Below are positions 24,655 to 48,048 of a stretch of DNA of 64,000 nucleotides, one piece after another. Location of the stretch: assembly GCF_901521055.1 (NCBI RefSeq), contig NZ_CABEGA010000009.1, positions 1 through 64,000 of the forward strand. The letters run 5' to 3'. How positions within the stretch are numbered: position 1 is the stretch's first letter; the number at the start of each line of letters is the position of its first letter. The notes under the pieces were generated by a model. It searched no databases. It was not told where the DNA came from and saw only the letters and a list, made by a program, of their open reading frames with translations. The position numbers and the translations under genes were made by a program. The DNA comes from Cellulomonas hominis (GTDB taxonomy: Bacteria; Actinomycetota; Actinomycetes; Actinomycetales; Cellulomonadaceae).

Positions 24655-24698
24655 CGACGACGGCCCGTCCCCCCGCAGCGGGGGACGGGCCGTCGTCG
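24655..24698. terminator. Bidirectional terminator
   Basis: A perfect 19-bp stem (24655-24673 with 24680-24698) with a 6-nt loop, between the convergent stress-protein and aminopeptidase genes. Confidence 0.88.
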
Positions 24699-24709
24699 CG
24701 TCCGGGGCG

Positions 24710-26269
24710 TCAGCGGCCGAGCAGGCCCGCCATCCAGGCCTCGACGTCCTCGGGGCGCCGGGGGAGGGCGGCCGACAGGTTCTCGTTGCCGTCGGCGGTG
24801 ATCAGCACGTCGTCCTCGATGCGCACGCCGATGCCCCGCAGCTCCTCCGGCACCCGCAGGTCGTCGACCTGGAAGTACAGGCCGGGCTCGATGGTGAACA
24901 CCATGCCGGGCTCGATCACCGCGTCCAGGTACATCTCCCGGCGGGCCTGCGCGCAGTCGTGCACGTCGAGGCCCAGGTGGTGGCTCGTGCCGTGCACCAT
25001 CCACCGGCGGTGCTGCTGCCCCTCGGGGGCCAGCGACTCCGCGGCGGGGACCGGCAGCATGCCCCACTCGTCCAGCCGCGCGGCGATGACCTCCATCGCG
25101 GCGGCGTGCACGTCGCGGAACCGGTTGCCCGGCACGGCGGCGGCGAACGCGGCGTCGGCGGCGTCCAGCACCGCCTGGTAGACGCGGCGCTGGGCGTCGG
25201 TCCACGTGCCGTCGACCGGGAGCGTGCGGGTGACGTCCGCCGTGTAGAGGGAGTCGACCTCGACGCCGGCGTCGATCAGCACGAGCTCGCCCGCGCGGAC
25301 CTGGCCGTCGTTGTCCGTCCAGTGCAGCGTCGTGGCGTGCGCGCCCGCGGCGGCGATGGTCTCGTAGCCGACGTAGTTGCCCTCGACGCGGGCCTGCGAC
25401 AGGAACGTGCCCTCGATGACCCGCTCGCCGCGGCGGTGCGCGACCGCCTCGGGGAGCCGCCGCACGACCTGCTCGAAGCCCTGGATCGTCGCGTCGACGG
25501 CGCTGCGCAGCTCGGCGACCTCGTGCGCGTCCTTGATCAGCCGCAGCTCCGAGAGGGCCTCGACCAGGGCGGCGTCGCGCTCGCCGGCGTCCTCGGCCGC
25601 CCGGATCTCCTCGACGACGGCCTCGACGGCCTCGTCCACGTCCGGGACGACCAGCAGCCGCACGCCGTCGGCGCCGACGTCCTTGGCCAGGGCGTCGTGG
25701 AGCCCGTCGCGGTGCGCGGTGCGGATGCCCGTGACCGTCGCCATGTCCTCGAGCGTCGGGCGCGGGCCCACCCAGAACTCCCCGTACCGGGCGTCGGAGA
25801 AGAACTCCTCGGTGTCCCGGCCGGCCAGGGGGCGCATGTACAGGACGGCGCGGTGCGTCGACCGGCCGCCGTCGGGCAGCTCGTCGCCCTCGCCGTCCGC
25901 GGCGGGGTGCAGCACCAGCACCGCGTCCGGCTCCTGCTCCGCGCCGAGCCCGGTCAGGTGGGCGAACGCGGAGTGCGGGCGGAACCGGTAGTCGGTGTCG
26001 TTCGAGCGCACCTTGTACGCGCCGGCGGGCACCACCAGGCGCTCGCCGGGGAACTGCGCCGCCAGGCGGGCGCGGCGGGCGGCCGCGAACGGCGCCACGT
26101 CGGCGGCCACGGCCGTGCTCGCGGGACGCTCGGCCCAGCCGGACGTCACCCACTCGAGGAACGCGGCGGACGACGGGCGCTGGCTGCGGTTCTGCCCGCG
26201 GTCGGCGAGGGTCTGCTCGGCCGGGGCCTGTGCGGGCGCGGGGGACTCGGGGGTGGTGTCGGTGGCCAT
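24710..26269 (-). CDS. pepP: Xaa-Pro aminopeptidase (aminopeptidase P)
   Basis: Removes N-terminal residues ahead of proline (EC 3.4.11.9); cytoplasmic Mn enzyme. 519 residues: an N-terminal AMP_N domain (about 60-200) and a pita-bread catalytic domain with all five metal ligands visible: two Asp in LIDAGVEVDSLYTADVTRTLP, His in HGTSHHLGLDVHD, Glu in IEPGLYF and Glu in GVRIEDDVLIT. The ATG has a CAGACT hexamer 8 nt upstream, and the first 40 residues are disordered and Ala/Pro/Thr-rich. Confidence 0.95.
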   Translation of the reverse strand: MATDTTPESPAPAQAPAEQTLADRGQNRSQRPSSAAFLEWVTSGWAERPASTAVAADVAPFAAARRARLAAQFPGERLVVPAGAYKVRSNDTDYRFRPHSAFAHLTGLGAEQEPDAVLVLHPAADGEGDELPDGGRSTHRAVLYMRPLAGRDTEEFFSDARYGEFWVGPRPTLEDMATVTGIRTAHRDGLHDALAKDVGADGVRLLVVPDVDEAVEAVVEEIRAAEDAGERDAALVEALSELRLIKDAHEVAELRSAVDATIQGFEQVVRRLPEAVAHRRGERVIEGTFLSQARVEGNYVGYETIAAAGAHATTLHWTDNDGQVRAGELVLIDAGVEVDSLYTADVTRTLPVDGTWTDAQRRVYQAVLDAADAAFAAAVPGNRFRDVHAAAMEVIAARLDEWGMLPVPAAESLAPEGQQHRRWMVHGTSHHLGLDVHDCAQARREMYLDAVIEPGMVFTIEPGLYFQVDDLRVPEELRGIGVRIEDDVLITADGNENLSAALPRRPEDVEAWMAGLLGR

Positions 26270-43801: not shown

Positions 43802-43998
43802 CGTCTGCCTTCTGGCTCGGTGGGTCGTGCGGTCGTGCTCGTGCACCGGGGTGAACGCCCGGGCGCCGCAGGATCATCCCCCTCGCGCGGCCCCGGCGTG
43901 CGCGACCGGTCACACTGCGGGACGTCGTGCCGGGTGCCTGCCCGGCCGCCTGGGGACGACGGTCACGGGTGTCGGTGCGGGGTGCGAGGATCGGGGCG

Positions 43999-46041
43999 AT
44001 GCCTTCCGCCGACGCCCTCCTCGACGCCCTGGACCCGGACCAGCGGGAGGTCGCGCGCGCCCTCACCGGGCCGGTGTGCGTCCTGGCCGGTGCCGGTACC
44101 GGCAAGACGCGCGCGATCACCCACCGCATCGCGTACGGGGTCCAGTCCGGCGTGTACGCGCCGACCAGCGTGCTCGCCGTGACGTTCACCGCGCGCGCCG
44201 CGGGGGAGATGCGCACCCGGCTCCGCGACCTCGGTGTCCCCGGCGTGCAGGCCCGGACCTTCCACTCCGCGGCGCTGCGGCAGCTGCGGTACTTCTGGCC
44301 GAAGGTCGTCGGCGGGCCCGTGCCCGAGGTGCTCGCGCAGAAGGCGCCCGTCGTCGCCGACGCGTGCCACCGCCTCGGCCTGTCCGTCGACCGCGTCTCG
44401 GTCCGCGACCTCGCGTCCGAGATCGAGTGGGCCAAGGTCTCCCGGATCACCTCGGAGGACTACGTCCGCGCGGCCGCCGCCGCGGACCGGCCCGCGCCCG
44501 CCGGCCACGACCACCACGCCGTCGCCCGCCTCATCACCGCGTACGAGGACGCCAAGGACGCCCGCGGCGTGATGGACATGGAGGACATCCTCTGGCTGCT
44601 GGCCGGGATGCTCGTCGAGAACGGCGCCGTGGCCGACGAGGTGCGCGGCCAGTACCGCCGGTTCGTGGTCGACGAGTACCAGGACATCTCCCCGCTGCAG
44701 AAGTTCCTGCTCGAGCAGTGGCTCGGCGGCCGCGACGAGCTGTGCGTGGTCGGCGACCCGAGCCAGACCATCTACTCGTTCGCCGGCGCGACGCCGCACT
44801 ACCTCACGCGGTTCACGGCCGAGCACCCGAAGGCGCAGGTCGTGCGTCTGGTCCGCGACTACCGGTCGACGCCGCAGGTGGTGGGGCTGGCGAACGAGGT
44901 GCTGCGGCGGGCCCCGAAGGACCGCGCGGCCCGGTGGGAGCCGCTCGAGCTCGTCGCGCAGCGGCCGTCCGCCGGGCCGGTGCGGTTCGCGGTGTACGAC
45001 GACGACGAGGCGGAGGCCGCGGGCGTCGCCACCCGGATCGGGCGGCTCGTCGCCGCGGGCACCCGGCCCAGCGAGATCGCGGTGCTGTACCGGACGAACT
45101 CGCAGTCGGAGACGTTCGAGCAGGCGCTCGCTGCCATCGGGATCGGCTACGTCCTGCGCGGCGGCGAGCGCTTCTTCGCCCGCAAGGAGGTCCGGGACGC
45201 GATCGTCCGGCTGCGCGGTGCCGCCGTCGCAGCCGACGCGGACGCCCCGATGCAGGAGACGGTGCGGGACGCGCTGCGCTCCGCCGGCTGGACCGACGAG
45301 CCGCCCGCCGCGCGGGGTGCGGCGCGGGAGCGCTGGGACTCCATGAACGCGCTCGTGGCGCTCGGGGACGACGTCGCCGCCGCCGCCGAGCGGGCCGGGA
45401 AGCGGGCCACCGTGTCGGACCTCGTCGCCGAGCTGGACGAGCGCGCCGCGGCGCAGCACGCACCGACGGTCGAGGGCGTCACGCTCGCGTCCCTGCACGC
45501 CGCCAAGGGCCTGGAGTGGGACGCGGTGTTCCTCACGGGGTTGAGCGAGGGTCTGGTGCCGTGGGCCTCCGCGGACACCGCCGCCGACATCGCCGAGGAG
45601 CGCCGCCTGCTCTACGTCGGCATCACCCGCGCGCGGCAGCACCTGGAGCTGTCCTACGGCCGCTCCCGCACGCCGGGCGGGCGCGCCACCCGTCGCCGGT
45701 CCCGGTTCCTCGACGGTCTGTGGCCCCAGGAGGGTCGAGCGCGGTTCGGCGACGGCCGCCCCCGCGCGGTCCCGCGGCTCACGGGCGAGGTCGACGCCGA
45801 GCTGCTGTCCGCCCTGCAGTCCTGGCGGGCGGACCTCGCCCGGCGGACGTCCAAGCCGACGTACACGGTTCTCGGGGACGCGACGCTCTCCGCGATCGCC
45901 GAGCTCCGGCCGGCGAGCGTGCCCGAGCTGGCGCGGGTCCAGGGCATCGGTCCCGCGAAGATCGACCGGTACGGACCCGAGCTGCTCGCCCTCGTCGCGG
46001 GCCACCGCCCGGCGGCCGCGGGCGAGGCGGCGGCGGGCTGA
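43999..46041 (+). CDS. uvrD2: UvrD2-type DNA helicase with HRDC domain
   Basis: 680 residues. SF1A motor: Walker A LAGAGTGKTRAI (about 29-40), VTFTARAAGEM, motif II VVDEYQDISP (about 223-232), GDPSQTIYSFAGA, LHAAKGLEWDAVFLTG and YVGITRAR. A C-terminal HRDC domain (about 595-670; VPELARVQGIGPAKIDRYG) matches UvrD2. The tetracysteine zinc motif found between motor and HRDC in mycobacterial UvrD2 is not seen; that segment is a short RFGDGRPRAVPRL linker. GAGGAT (43986-43991) ends 8 nt before the ATG. Confidence 0.93.
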   Translation: MPSADALLDALDPDQREVARALTGPVCVLAGAGTGKTRAITHRIAYGVQSGVYAPTSVLAVTFTARAAGEMRTRLRDLGVPGVQARTFHSAALRQLRYFWPKVVGGPVPEVLAQKAPVVADACHRLGLSVDRVSVRDLASEIEWAKVSRITSEDYVRAAAAADRPAPAGHDHHAVARLITAYEDAKDARGVMDMEDILWLLAGMLVENGAVADEVRGQYRRFVVDEYQDISPLQKFLLEQWLGGRDELCVVGDPSQTIYSFAGATPHYLTRFTAEHPKAQVVRLVRDYRSTPQVVGLANEVLRRAPKDRAARWEPLELVAQRPSAGPVRFAVYDDDEAEAAGVATRIGRLVAAGTRPSEIAVLYRTNSQSETFEQALAAIGIGYVLRGGERFFARKEVRDAIVRLRGAAVAADADAPMQETVRDALRSAGWTDEPPAARGAARERWDSMNALVALGDDVAAAAERAGKRATVSDLVAELDERAAAQHAPTVEGVTLASLHAAKGLEWDAVFLTGLSEGLVPWASADTAADIAEERRLLYVGITRARQHLELSYGRSRTPGGRATRRRSRFLDGLWPQEGRARFGDGRPRAVPRLTGEVDAELLSALQSWRADLARRTSKPTYTVLGDATLSAIAELRPASVPELARVQGIGPAKIDRYGPELLALVAGHRPAAAGEAAAG

Positions 46042-46045
46042 CCCG

Positions 46046-46064
46046 GCGCACCGGCCCCCGTCCG
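46046..46064 (+). terminator. Possible weak terminator after uvrD2
   Basis: CACCGG/CCGGTG (46046-46051, 46059-46064) with a 7-nt loop, five bases past the uvrD2 stop. Short for this genome, so tentative. Confidence 0.35.
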
Positions 46065-46171
46065 GTGTGACGCAGGTCCCGCCGTCGCTGAGCGCCGGCT
46101 GGACGGGCCCTGTGGCGGCGGTCCGGCGCCGCCCGTCACGGGCCGCAATGAGCCGTGGCAGAAACTCGTCG

Positions 46172-46221
46172 GAACTTTCTCGGTTATTCGGTTGTGCGGC
46201 CCGTCCGGGCACCTCTACGGT
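46172..46221 (+). promoter_or_regulatory. whiB7 promoter with upstream AT-rich element
   Basis: TTGTGC (46192-46197) and TACGGT (46216-46221) with an 18-bp spacer form the best promoter in the region; the RNA would start near 46228. Directly upstream, 46172-46189 is AT-rich (GAACTTTCTCGGTTATTC) in otherwise GC-rich DNA. An AT-rich block just upstream of -35 is the known recognition feature for the WhiB7-sigma-A complex, so autoactivation is expected. Confidence 0.75.
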
Positions 46222-46292
46222 GAACGAGTCCTGATGGAAGACCACGCTGCGCCAGCAGCCGGTCGGCGACACGAAGAAGGAGGTGGGCAGCT

Positions 46293-46493
46293 GTGAAGAA
46301 CATGAAGAACGGGATCTCCGTGATCGCGTCGCCGTTCACCGCACCCACCACCGGCGTGTTCCAGGGGACCACTGCGCCCTCTGCCGTCCGCGGCCTCGGG
46401 ATCGACCCGGGCTTCGGCGGCGCCGGTCTCCGGCTGCGTGCACGCGATCTCACGGTCGCCCCCGACTCCGTCCCAGGAGGACCGGTCATCTGA
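46293..46493 (+). CDS. whiB7 leader peptide (upstream ORF)
   Basis: 66 codons with GTG start and a strong AGGAGG (46279-46284) 8 nt upstream, better than most genes here. The peptide starts MKNMKNGISVIASPFTAPTT and ends VPGGPVI; it has no similarity to a known functional protein. Upstream ORFs mediate ribosome-dependent attenuation of whiB7/wblC in mycobacteria and Streptomyces. It lies between the whiB7 promoter and a terminator-like hairpin, which starts 22 nt after its stop, so it is called a regulatory leader ORF. Confidence 0.85.
   Translation: MKNMKNGISVIASPFTAPTTGVFQGTTAPSAVRGLGIDPGFGGAGLRLRARDLTVAPDSVPGGPVI
46387..46396 (+). promoter_or_regulatory. Putative antiterminator arm inside the leader ORF
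   Basis: TCCGCGGCCT is the exact reverse complement of AGGCCGCGGA (46514-46523), which contains the whole 5' arm of the downstream terminator hairpin. Pairing of the two (10 bp) would prevent the hairpin (8 bp). The segment covers about codons 32-35 of the leader ORF, so ribosome position would decide whether it is free. Confidence 0.6.
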
Positions 46494-46514
46494 GTCGATG
46501 ACCGATCTCTTCCA

Positions 46515-46543
46515 GGCCGCGGAGTCCACCGGATCCCGCGGCC
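46515..46543 (+). terminator. whiB7 leader attenuator hairpin
   Basis: GGCCGCGG (46515-46522) and CCGCGGCC (46536-46543) form a perfect 8-bp stem with a 13-nt loop between the leader ORF stop and whiB7. The sequence after it, CTCGTCATTTCC, contains only a weak T-run. Confidence 0.7.
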
Positions 46544-46632
46544 CTCGTCATTTCCGCCCTTGATGCAAGGGGGGAGCGAGGACGCGGATCCACCGCCACC
46601 TCGCTCAACCCGCAAGTCATCAGGAGGACATC

Positions 46633-46980
46633 GTGCGGCTCACGACGCTGCTCGACACGGTCAACCAGGGCGGTTCCGGCCCCTGGCCACCCGCCGAGAC
46701 GACCGCCGTCGCCGACGTGCAGTTCGACGCGCTGGTCGCCGGCCTCATCCCGTGCCGCTCGAACGACCCGGAGCTCTGGTTCGCCGAGCGCACGGCCGAG
46801 GTCGAGCGCGCCAAGGCGCTCTGCCGCACCTGCCCGCTCCTCGAGGGCTGCCTCGCCGGGGCGGTCGAGCGGCAGGAGCCGTGGGGCGTGTGGGGCGGGG
46901 AGGTCTTCGTCGGAGGTCAGGTCGTCGCCGTCAAGCGCGGGCGCGGCCGGCCCCGCAAGGACGCCAGCCCGGCGGCCTGA
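46633..46980 (+). CDS. whiB7: WhiB7 transcriptional activator
   Basis: 115 residues. Four Fe-S cysteines at 41, 64, 67 and 73, the GVWGG turn (85-89) and the AT-hook RGRPRK (104-109), which defines WhiB7 within the WhiB family. With sigma-A it activates intrinsic resistance genes at AT-rich promoters. The GTG start follows AGGAGG (46622-46627). It lies downstream of uvrD2 as in mycobacteria, with its own promoter and a roughly 400-nt attenuated leader. Confidence 0.96.
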   Translation: MRLTTLLDTVNQGGSGPWPPAETTAVADVQFDALVAGLIPCRSNDPELWFAERTAEVERAKALCRTCPLLEGCLAGAVERQEPWGVWGGEVFVGGQVVAVKRGRGRPRKDASPAA

Positions 46981-46986
46981 CACGGC

Positions 46987-47991
46987 TCACGTCGCGAGGG
47001 CGGCGCACCCGCAGTCCGGGTGCGCCGCCCACCGGCGCAACCGGGGCTCCGCCTCGGGCAGGGGGATCTCGTACTGGGCCCCGAGCGTGCGGGGCGCGTG
47101 ACCGTCGAGGTGCGCGAGCACCTCGGCCGCGGCGAGCCCCCCGGCCACCGCGGCGAGCACGGCACTGGCCCCCACCACGGCCGGCCTGCCCGGGCGGTCC
47201 CGGGCGGTCAGCTGCGCGAGCAGCACCGGCCACGCGGGGTCCAGCGCCGCCCGGTGCAGGTCGACGCACCGGACGCACGGCAGGGGTCGCCCGGCCGGGG
47301 CGAGCGCCACCGGGACCACGAACGGTCCGACGGCCGCGTCCGCCTCCCGCACGACCACGGGCAGGTGCGCGACGTCGGCCCCCAGCAGCTCCAGGGCCGT
47401 GCCGGGGTCCGTGGCACCTGCCGCGACGGTCACGACCACGTCGGGCGACGCCTGGCCGGGCCGGCGTACCCGCACGGACGGCGCGAGCGCGCGGACCAGG
47501 TCCGTCACCACCTGGTCCCGGCGCAGGCCCACGTGGTCCGCGGTCACACCGCCACCCACGTCACCCGGCCGCACGTCACCGGGGTCGTCGAGCTGGAGCG
47601 TCCCGACGCCGGAGGCCACGAGGGTCGTGGCCACCGCGACGCCGACGCGGTCGAGCCCGGTGATCGCGACGGTGGCGCCCGCGCGACGACGCAGCGCCTC
47701 CACCCCGTCGCCCTCGCCGGACGTCAGGTCGGCTCCCAGGAGCTCGGGGGCCAGCCGCCCGGCGACGCGCGGCGGGCGGGCGCGCGGGGAACGCACCAGG
47801 CCGGCGGCTGCCAACCCGTCGAGCACCGGGCGCGGCAGCGACGCGTCGAGCGCGCGGTCACCCGTGCCGAGCAGGCGCTCCGCCTGGTCTGGGGTCAGGC
47901 CCCGGATCCGCACCGCCCAGCGGGGATCCGTCCCGACCTGCACCTCGTCCGCGGCGCGTCGCAGCACGCGGAGCCCTCGCTTGAGCTGCAC
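46987..47991 (-). CDS. ThiF/E1-like protein with degenerate nucleotide loop
   Basis: 334 residues. The first 90 are unassigned. A Rossmann ThiF-like core starts at about 103 with ATVAITGLDRVGVAVATTLVASGVGTLQLDDPGDV; the glycine loop GxGxxG is altered (GLDRVG). C-terminal cysteine pairs CVRC (about 235) and CGC (near the end) could hold zinc as in ThiF/MoeB. No rhodanese domain and no clear adenylation Arg/Asp set, so activity is uncertain. GTG start; convergent with whiB7, gap 6 bp. It could correspond to the moeB-like gene of related genomes. Confidence 0.75.
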   Translation of the reverse strand: MQLKRGLRVLRRAADEVQVGTDPRWAVRIRGLTPDQAERLLGTGDRALDASLPRPVLDGLAAAGLVRSPRARPPRVAGRLAPELLGADLTSGEGDGVEALRRRAGATVAITGLDRVGVAVATTLVASGVGTLQLDDPGDVRPGDVGGGVTADHVGLRRDQVVTDLVRALAPSVRVRRPGQASPDVVVTVAAGATDPGTALELLGADVAHLPVVVREADAAVGPFVVPVALAPAGRPLPCVRCVDLHRAALDPAWPVLLAQLTARDRPGRPAVVGASAVLAAVAGGLAAAEVLAHLDGHAPRTLGAQYEIPLPEAEPRLRRWAAHPDCGCAALAT

Positions 47992-48048
47992 GGCGTCCCA
48001 CCCCCGTCCCGTCGACGGTCACCACGGTGGCACGTCGGACGGGGGCGG

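What the first reader, a model, noticed from the sequence alone, without database searches (positions are those of the whole stretch)
46172..46633. whiB7 attenuator: 66-codon leader ORF, terminator, and a 10-bp antiterminator hidden in the leader ORF
The hairpin after the leader ORF (46515-46522 with 46536-46543, 8 bp) has a competitor: 46387-46396 in codons about 32-35 is exactly complementary to 46514-46523 (10 bp). A ribosome stalled early by an antibiotic leaves the arm free, so the antiterminator forms and whiB7 is transcribed; a ribosome moving through masks it and the terminator forms. The promoter has an AT-rich element for WhiB7 autoactivation. Attenuation of whiB7 is known; this specific pairing is predicted here.
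Basis: partly seen in the sequence, partly recalled or inferred. Interest (0 to 1): 0.85.

Follow-up and report, generated by a model that had tools for sequence, protein, structure and literature searches.

The report
whiB7 antibiotic-sensing leader; proposed pairing misplaced
The DNA in front of the antibiotic-resistance regulator whiB7 in this Cellulomonas genome looks like a translation-sensing on/off switch of a kind already known in related bacteria, but the RNA arm that most likely works the switch lies at the end of the small leader gene, not in its middle as first proposed.

Summary
uORF-controlled attenuation of whiB7/wblC is published. The proposed 10-bp antiterminator is most likely chance: about 1% of shuffles contain one, only 1 of 78 leaders has one, 8 of 10 close relatives keep 3-5 of 10 pairs, and its predicted probability in nascent RNA is at most 0.11. 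The supported antiterminator is proximal. The last leader codons (46464-46471) pair with the terminator's ascending arm (46519-46526), enclosing a hairpin around the leader stop codon. Exact complements of 8 nt or more lie near the terminator in 41 of 78 leaders (1.9 expected). Native halves fold better than the median swapped half in 51 of 54. The terminator recurs in 28 of 29 further loci from the class. A conserved nucleotide element, CCAGGGGnnnRSTSYGYCC, lies about 94 nt into the leader ORF; my searches found no report of it, but the primary papers were not held. It matches the RNA polymerase pause consensus and is tied to the ORF start, not the terminator. It may hold polymerase for the first ribosome. 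Everything is inferred from sequence.

The parts
46184..46188 (+). AT-rich element (TTATT), candidate WhiB7 autoactivation site, 3 bp upstream of the -35
   Evidence: Sequence; TTATT/TAAAT-like in most of the 11 rows of A1; spacing as reported for WhiB7 sites in PMC10727445 (passage)
46192..46221 (+). Promoter-like -35 TTGTGC (46192-46197) and -10 TACGGT (46216-46221)
   Evidence: Sequence; GGTTGT (46190-46195) and TA--GT of the -10 are invariant in the 11 rows of A1; a start site near 46228 is inferred
46278..46284 (+). Shine-Dalgarno of the leader ORF (AGGAGGT)
   Evidence: Sequence; AGGAGGTG invariant in the 11 rows of A1
46293..46493 (+). Leader ORF (uORF), 66 codons, GTG start, TGA stop 46491-46493
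   Evidence: a uORF whose stop codon begins 15-30 nt before the terminator arm was found by script in 101 of 106 leaders
46360..46379 (+). Conserved pause-like element TCCAGGGGACCACTGCGCCC; predicted RNA 3' end (-1) at 46375, +1 at 46376
   Evidence: Conserved bases incl. T at a codon third position with different amino acids; position weight matrix and pause-pattern tests; genome scan
46387..46396 (+).
46464..46471 (+). Antiterminator helix A, 5' arm (GACTCCGT)
46484..46503 (+). Stop-codon hairpin GGTCATC(TGAGTC)GATGACC; uORF stop in the loop
   Evidence: covariation of the equivalent helix in A2
46519..46526 (+). Antiterminator helix A, 3' arm (GCGGAGTC), inside the ascending terminator arm
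46515..46543 (+). Intrinsic terminator hairpin: 46515-46527 with 46531-46543, one A.C mismatch, loop 46528-46530
   Evidence: terminator segment z < -2 in 40 of 40 leaders tested
46633..46980 (+). whiB7 (WhiB-family regulator, 115 aa, GTG start)

Best explanation
It is a translation-sensing transcription attenuator of the known whiB7/wblC type, working in time rather than at equilibrium. Polymerase transcribes the leader and probably pauses near 46375, about 83 nt into the uORF, while the first ribosome loads. If that ribosome translates to the last codons, it covers 46464-46471 and the stop-codon hairpin as the terminator's ascending arm emerges, so the arm can pair only with 46531-46543 and transcription stops. 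If the ribosome is stalled or missing (antibiotic, amino-acid shortage), 46464-46471 pairs with 46519-46526 in a rod capped by the stop-codon hairpin. The ascending arm is then taken before its descending partner is made, and polymerase reads on into whiB7, whose product may boost its own promoter. Shown here: sequence, conservation, pairing statistics, predicted folds. Inferred: ribosome masking, pausing, induction, autoactivation.
For: Exact complement of 8 nt or more to the arm within the 54 nt upstream: 41 of 78 leaders (1.9 expected by shuffling), 13 of 40 thinned leaders (0.76 expected); three blocks farther upstream give 10, 3 and 0 of 78 (3.2, 2.0, 1.0 expected) and 3, 2 and 0 of 40 (1.5, 1.4, 0.5 expected). 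Nascent RNA up to the ascending arm: mean z -2.41 over 40 thinned leaders, 25 of 40 below -2; terminator 40 of 40 below -2. On MAFFT alignment A2 (41 rows chosen out of 78), 89.3% of cells pair, 18 cells change on both sides against 6.2 in shuffles (0 of 500 reach it), covariation score 0.146 against 0.110 in shuffles and at most 0.074 when slid. Native halves fold better than the median swapped half in 51 of 54 leaders (cut 20). In the window, helix A probability is 0.91-0.99 with the ribosome at codons 2-50 and 0.0 at codons 55-64. A covariance model of the rod has one clear match in the window's genome, which helped build it (63.4 bits, next 19.2). In 60 genomes of the class it has 19 matches in 18 genomes; 12 of the 19 lie just upstream of whiB7, including the seven best. 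28 of 29 class loci have the terminator; 23 of 29 nascent segments have z below -2. The same GACTCC letters are read in different frames (Asp-Ser in L001, Thr-Pro in L037 and L040), so selection acts on RNA.
Against: With the descending arm present the terminator wins at equilibrium whatever the ribosome does (0.994-0.997), so the switch must be kinetic, which was not simulated. With the ribosome at codon 66 the model still allows helix A (0.977) unless pairing across a bound ribosome is forbidden. Only 19 of 54 leaders exceed 95% of swaps. In one search the count of pair types is not unusual (127 of 500 shuffles reach it), and sliding by +1 or +2 gives 16 or 14 cells changed on both sides, close to 18; five of eight helix A pairs never vary, and the rows were picked and cut by a GACTCC-like motif. 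RNAalifold on the class alignment A3 gave no structure. The rod model misses 42 of 60 class genomes at E 0.1 under strict filters and also matches the opposite strand of some sites. The window's T run is weak. I had no RNA data for this strain.
Confidence: 0.8

Rival explanations
1. One reading: 46387-46396 is the working antiterminator arm in this species.
For: Exact 10-nt match; best single partner of the arm in a duplex search, 4 of 100 shuffles reach its energy; two near relatives with one shared sequence keep 8 of 10 pairs.
Against: Chance about 1%; 8 of 10 relatives keep 3-5 pairs; nascent-RNA probability at most 0.107; not covered by a ribosome finishing the uORF.
Confidence: 0.04
2. 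The mid-uORF conserved element acts as a nascent-peptide arrest motif (QGxALP-like) that senses drugs, rather than as a polymerase pause.
For: Most strong instances are in the same frame, and 48 of 101 uORFs match a QGx(A/G/T/S)-type peptide pattern.
Against: A codon third position is fixed while the residue differs (T in 43 of 47 distinct instances over Ala, Gly, Thr and Ser codons); strong matches occur in other frames (L039, L100, L102) and weaker ones in L101, L103, L113, L117.
Confidence: 0.15
3. Premature termination is mainly Rho-dependent or due to uncoupling, and the hairpin only marks 3' ends.
For: Weak T run after the window's hairpin.
Against: Terminator sequence and fold conserved across the class with T-rich tails in many members; in Mtb linezolid lowers downstream RNA coverage of coding units with whiB7 as the notable exception (PMC10937400 passage).
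Confidence: 0.08
4. The stop-codon hairpin and rod control translation restart or RNA decay of the leader rather than termination.
For: The hairpin holds the uORF stop codon.
Against: The rod's 3' strand is the terminator's ascending arm itself, and whiB7's own ribosome site is about 80 nt further on.
Confidence: 0.05

Closest known systems
whiB7/wblC uORF attenuator of Mycobacterium and Streptomyces (Burian and Thompson 2018; Lee, Lee and Roe 2022; neither read, known through passages in citing papers)
   Same: uORF, Rho-independent terminator just after it, antiterminator using sequences of both, WhiB7-type promoter; the terminator core recurs in class-level loci
trp/his/ilv leader-peptide attenuators (ilvB1 of Mtb in PMC13236596, passages; trp and his recalled)
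   Same: Ribosome position on a leader ORF chooses between terminator and antiterminator
   Different: No run of one regulatory codon noticed in the uORF; the signal would be general translation failure
ARE-ABCF leader attenuators (tiaA, are5sc: PMC12421871 passages; vmlR: PMC9226507, search listing only)
   Same: Antibiotic-induced read-through via a uORF; the vmlR paper's title names RNA polymerase pausing
   Different: Different gene, very short uORFs in tiaA and are5sc; sequences not compared here

Membership tests
whiB7/wblC uORF attenuator | Downstream gene is WhiB7/WblC (WhiB domain, orthologue) | tested here: met
   Pfam Whib 58.2 bits; 56-95% identity over 98-115 residues to the 80 loci kept of 397; best match of its own genome; no NCBIfam family matched
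whiB7/wblC uORF attenuator | Leader ORF with ribosome site, ending just before the terminator | tested here: met
   46293-46493, 21 nt between stop codon and GGCC of the arm; 101 of 106 leaders
whiB7/wblC uORF attenuator | Intrinsic terminator between uORF and gene | tested here: met
   T run weak in the window
whiB7/wblC uORF attenuator | Antiterminator sharing sequence with uORF and terminator | tested here: met
whiB7/wblC uORF attenuator | Induced by ribosome-targeting drugs or amino-acid starvation | not testable with these tools
   needs expression data
whiB7/wblC uORF attenuator | WhiB7 autoactivation site at the promoter | tested here: inconclusive
   Resembles the published spacing; binding not tested
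RNA polymerase elemental pause site | G-10, Y-1, G+1 (definition from PMC12288461 passage) | tested here: met
   Window 46366 G, 46375 C, 46376 G; 45 of 48 distinct strong instances match G-11 G-10 T-3 Y-1 G+1 (the -11 and -3 bases are recalled)
RNA polymerase elemental pause site | Polymerase actually pauses there | not testable with these tools
   no NET-seq or in vitro data to hand
Any Rfam family | Match to a curated covariance model | tested here: not met
   No match up to E 1 in 45000-48000

The most novel reading that the evidence does not exclude
whiB7 leaders across the Actinomycetes carry a conserved RNA polymerase pause site fixed about 90-100 nt after the uORF start. It holds polymerase until the first ribosome has loaded, so that ribosome traffic, not chance, decides between the stop-codon-hairpin antiterminator and the terminator. 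This would be a built-in synchroniser of an antibiotic-sensing attenuator.
Probability: 0.4. Interest if true: 0.65.

Novelty: new member of a known kind. Interest (0 to 1): 0.5.

Why it matters
whiB7 is a hub of intrinsic antibiotic resistance in actinobacteria, and a 2025 paper states that ribosome stalling in its uORF has not been tested (PMC12121999 passage). The comparison gives a concrete antiterminator with covariation support that can be tested base pair by base pair. It corrects a plausible but probably accidental pairing, and it points to a conserved pause-like element that could explain how polymerase and ribosome are kept in step. The rod model has one clear match in the window's 4-Mb genome, so an annotated RNA family could be built from it.

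Tried and rejected
Distal arm as antiterminator: rejected. Peptide-level selection on the mid-uORF motif: disfavoured by a codon third position and by frames. A hairpin stabilising the pause: the 32 nt upstream show no excess fold (mean z -0.29 over 36 leaders, 6 below -1.5). RNAalifold on A3: no consensus structure; the MAFFT rows do not line up the hairpin strands. Rfam: no match. Primary papers (Lee 2022, Poulton 2024): not held. Two RNA-discovery papers contain no 'whiB' or 'wbl' in their main text.

Errors corrected on the way. In some searches thirteen minus-strand loci were read in the wrong direction, so 'no canonical terminator' there is void; one search redoes all 29. L114's match is spurious. 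L083's row was in the wrong orientation; one search replaces it. One search used 14 of the 28 class leaders, all plus-strand. One search ended with an index error after most of its table; carry the analysis on. L074, L079 and L080 lack the terminator pattern and were left out of the 78. Part's output was cut: 36 of 40 leaders were fully visible, the totals were printed.

Full report
What is there. The window is part of a 4.07-Mb genome (G000 contig 9) whose nearest named relatives are Cellulomonas (the best 80 of 397 loci). At 46633-46980 lies whiB7 (Pfam Whib). Upstream come a promoter-like pair with an AT-rich element three bases above the -35 (sequence; spacing as in PMC10727445, passage), a Shine-Dalgarno site, a 66-codon uORF (46293-46493) and a terminator hairpin. 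The hairpin is longer than stated: 8 pairs, an A.C mismatch and four more pairs, and it is a 14-bp stem without mismatch in L001.

Is the distal 10-bp arm real? It is within reach of chance. A complement of 10 nt or more turns up in 1.1% of 5000 dinucleotide shuffles and 1.0% of 5000 codon-order shuffles of the uORF, and in 16 of 638 overlapping window pieces, the site itself included. Of 78 leaders with the terminator pattern (80 loci plus the window, three lacking the pattern), only the window has such a distal match. At the homologous place in 10 close relatives, eight keep 3-5 of 10 pairs and two (L006 and L082, identical there) keep 8 (some of the ten may be one species held twice). In predicted nascent RNA up to 46527 its probability is 0 to 0.107 for the 17 ribosome positions tried and without a ribosome. 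It also lies 94 nt before the stop codon, where a ribosome finishing the uORF would not cover it. In its favour, a duplex search that ignores all other pairing picks it as the arm's best partner in the window; 4 of 100 shuffles do as well.

What pairs instead. The terminator's ascending arm, (C)AGGCCGCGGAGTCC, is conserved in sequence more strictly than a hairpin needs. Its complement sits at the end of the uORF. Within the 54 nt upstream of the arm, exact complements of 8 nt or more occur in 41 of 78 leaders (1.9 expected) and in 13 of 40 leaders thinned for similarity (0.76 expected). Three equal blocks further upstream give 10, 3 and 0 of 78 (3.2, 2.0, 1.0 expected), and 3, 2 and 0 of 40 thinned (1.5, 1.4, 0.5 expected). 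In the window this is 46464-46471 with 46519-46526. Between the two strands is a hairpin holding the uORF stop codon, 46484-46490 with 46497-46503. Folding nascent RNA up to the ascending arm gives mean z -2.41 over the 40 thinned leaders, 25 of 40 below -2. The rod, or the same design in a register nearer the stop codon, is the predicted fold in most of the 36 leaders whose full output I could see. L014, L022 and L026 do not stand out (z -0.16, 0.07, -0.22).

Covariation. On the MAFFT alignment A2 (41 of 78 leaders, chosen in the commonest register and cut at the motif), 89.3% of cells pair, 18 cells change on both sides against 6.2 in shuffles, and the score is 0.146 against 0.110 (0 of 500 reach either) and at most 0.074 when slid. 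Against this, the number of pair types is not unusual (127 of 500 shuffles reach it), and sliding by +1 or +2 columns gives 16 or 14 cells changed on both sides. Fourteen of the 18 cells are in the stop-codon hairpin; five of eight helix A pairs never vary. Individual cases are telling: L027 and L053 have GTGGAGTC with GACTCCAC, L008 has ACGGAGTC with GACTCCGT, and L031 has GGAATCC with GGATTCT where its relative L011 has GGAGTCC with GGACTTC. Swapping halves between leaders costs folding energy: native is better than the median swap in 51 of 54 and better than 95% of swaps in 19 of 54 (cut 20; cuts 18 and 22 give 52 and 49, 18 and 23). The GACTCC letters are read as Asp-Ser in L001 and as part of Thr-Pro in L037 and L040, so selection is on RNA.

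Breadth. A covariance model of the rod (R1) has one clear match in the window's genome, which is one of its building rows (63.4 bits; next 19.2, E about 2). In 60 genomes across the class, under strict filters, 19 matches in 18 genomes reach E 0.1 and 42 genomes have none; comparing coordinates, 12 of the 19 lie just upstream of whiB7, including the seven best. In a search of 61 sources, 8 of the 29 class loci, none of them used to build it, match at E 0.003 or better. The model also matches the opposite strand of some sites. One search found whiB7 in 103 of 118 class genomes and gave 29 further loci, the best-scoring ones; 28 of these 29 have the terminator core and the last one's match is spurious (which replaces). 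Many of those uORFs end in W(S/G)PP-type tails (WSPPV in L102, L103, L106, L110), whose codons take part in the rod. No Rfam family matches the region.

How it would work. In the window helix A is predicted at 0.91-0.99 while the ribosome is at codons 2-50 and at 0.0 when it sits at codons 55-64; at codon 66 it is allowed again (0.977) if RNA may pair across the ribosome. Once the descending arm exists, the terminator wins at equilibrium (0.994-0.997), so the decision must be made during transcription. A ribosome in the last codons lets the terminator form; a stalled or absent ribosome lets the rod take the ascending arm first. This agrees with the published picture for whiB7/wblC (passages). 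Ribosome stalling in the uORF itself is said not to have been tested (PMC12121999 passage).

A second conserved element. Inside the uORF is TCCAGGGGnnnRSTSYGYCC (window 46360-46379). It is conserved by base, not by residue. 48 of 101 uORFs match a peptide pattern that allows Ala, Gly, Thr or Ser at one place; in 47 distinct instances the third base of that codon is T in 43. Strong matches occur in other frames in L039, L100 and L102. A matrix from 39 instances scores above 10 in 54 of 106 leaders, ten of them outside the set it was built from, and at 6 of 127,960 window positions, the element included. The layout fits the elemental pause signal, G-10, Y-1, G+1 (PMC12288461 passage; the -11 and -3 bases are recalled): 45 of 48 distinct instances match G-11 G-10 T-3 Y-1 G+1, 22 with G-2 as well. 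The bare pattern GGN6TNYG falls in uORF bases 60-110 in 76 of 101 leaders (15.0 expected), and in 35 of 56 leaders not used for the matrix (6.0 expected). Neighbouring blocks give 11 of 101 (9.0) and 11 of 91 (8.6); in the 56 they give 8 of 56 (5.3) and 8 of 46 (3.3). These leaders were not thinned for relatedness. The predicted pause lies a median of 94 nt after the uORF start (52 leaders, quartiles 88-100, range -22 to 136), whereas its distance to the terminator has quartiles 108-182 and runs from 73 to 259 nt. In 25 genomes the strict pattern has 28 matches (10 for the reversed control pattern); by coordinates 15 of the 28 lie about 210-350 nt upstream of the whiB7 match in the right orientation. 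No pause hairpin was seen. Against this reading, Mtb pausing 200-500 nt after starts showed no strong motif (PMC10937400 passage), and 25 of 101 leaders lack the pattern. A search for whiB7 with pausing and leader terms listed six papers; of these only PMC10937400 was then searched for pause terms, so I cannot exclude an earlier report.

Verdict. The finding is a real whiB7 attenuator by its anatomy, a new member of a known kind. The proposed antiterminator arm is most likely a coincidence; a proximal, covarying rod is the better candidate. The pause-like element is the part most likely to interest a specialist.

Noticed in passing
window 46360-46379: Conserved pause-like element in the middle of the uORF, spaced from the uORF start rather than from the terminator (treated in the report).
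   Followed up: yes
L029, L030, L032-L036, L043, about 104-107 nt upstream of the terminator arm: These Cellulosimicrobium-type leaders carry a second AGG(A/G)CTCCG complement of the arm about 60 nt further upstream, which probably raises the nearest control block.
   Followed up: no
L024, L053: Records titled Sphaerisporangium cinnabarinum (L024) and a Proteobacteria MAG (L053) carry Cellulosimicrobium- and Cellulomonas-like whiB7 loci; the assemblies may be mislabelled or mixed.
   Followed up: no
window 24690-24749: Weak match of the rod model (24.3 bits, E 0.01 over 259,691 bases), probably chance.
   Followed up: no
window 43927-46041: UvrD/PcrA-like helicase with an HRDC domain directly upstream of the whiB7 promoter, same strand.
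   Followed up: no
L074, L079, L080: Three whiB7 loci without the otherwise conserved terminator pattern.
   Followed up: no
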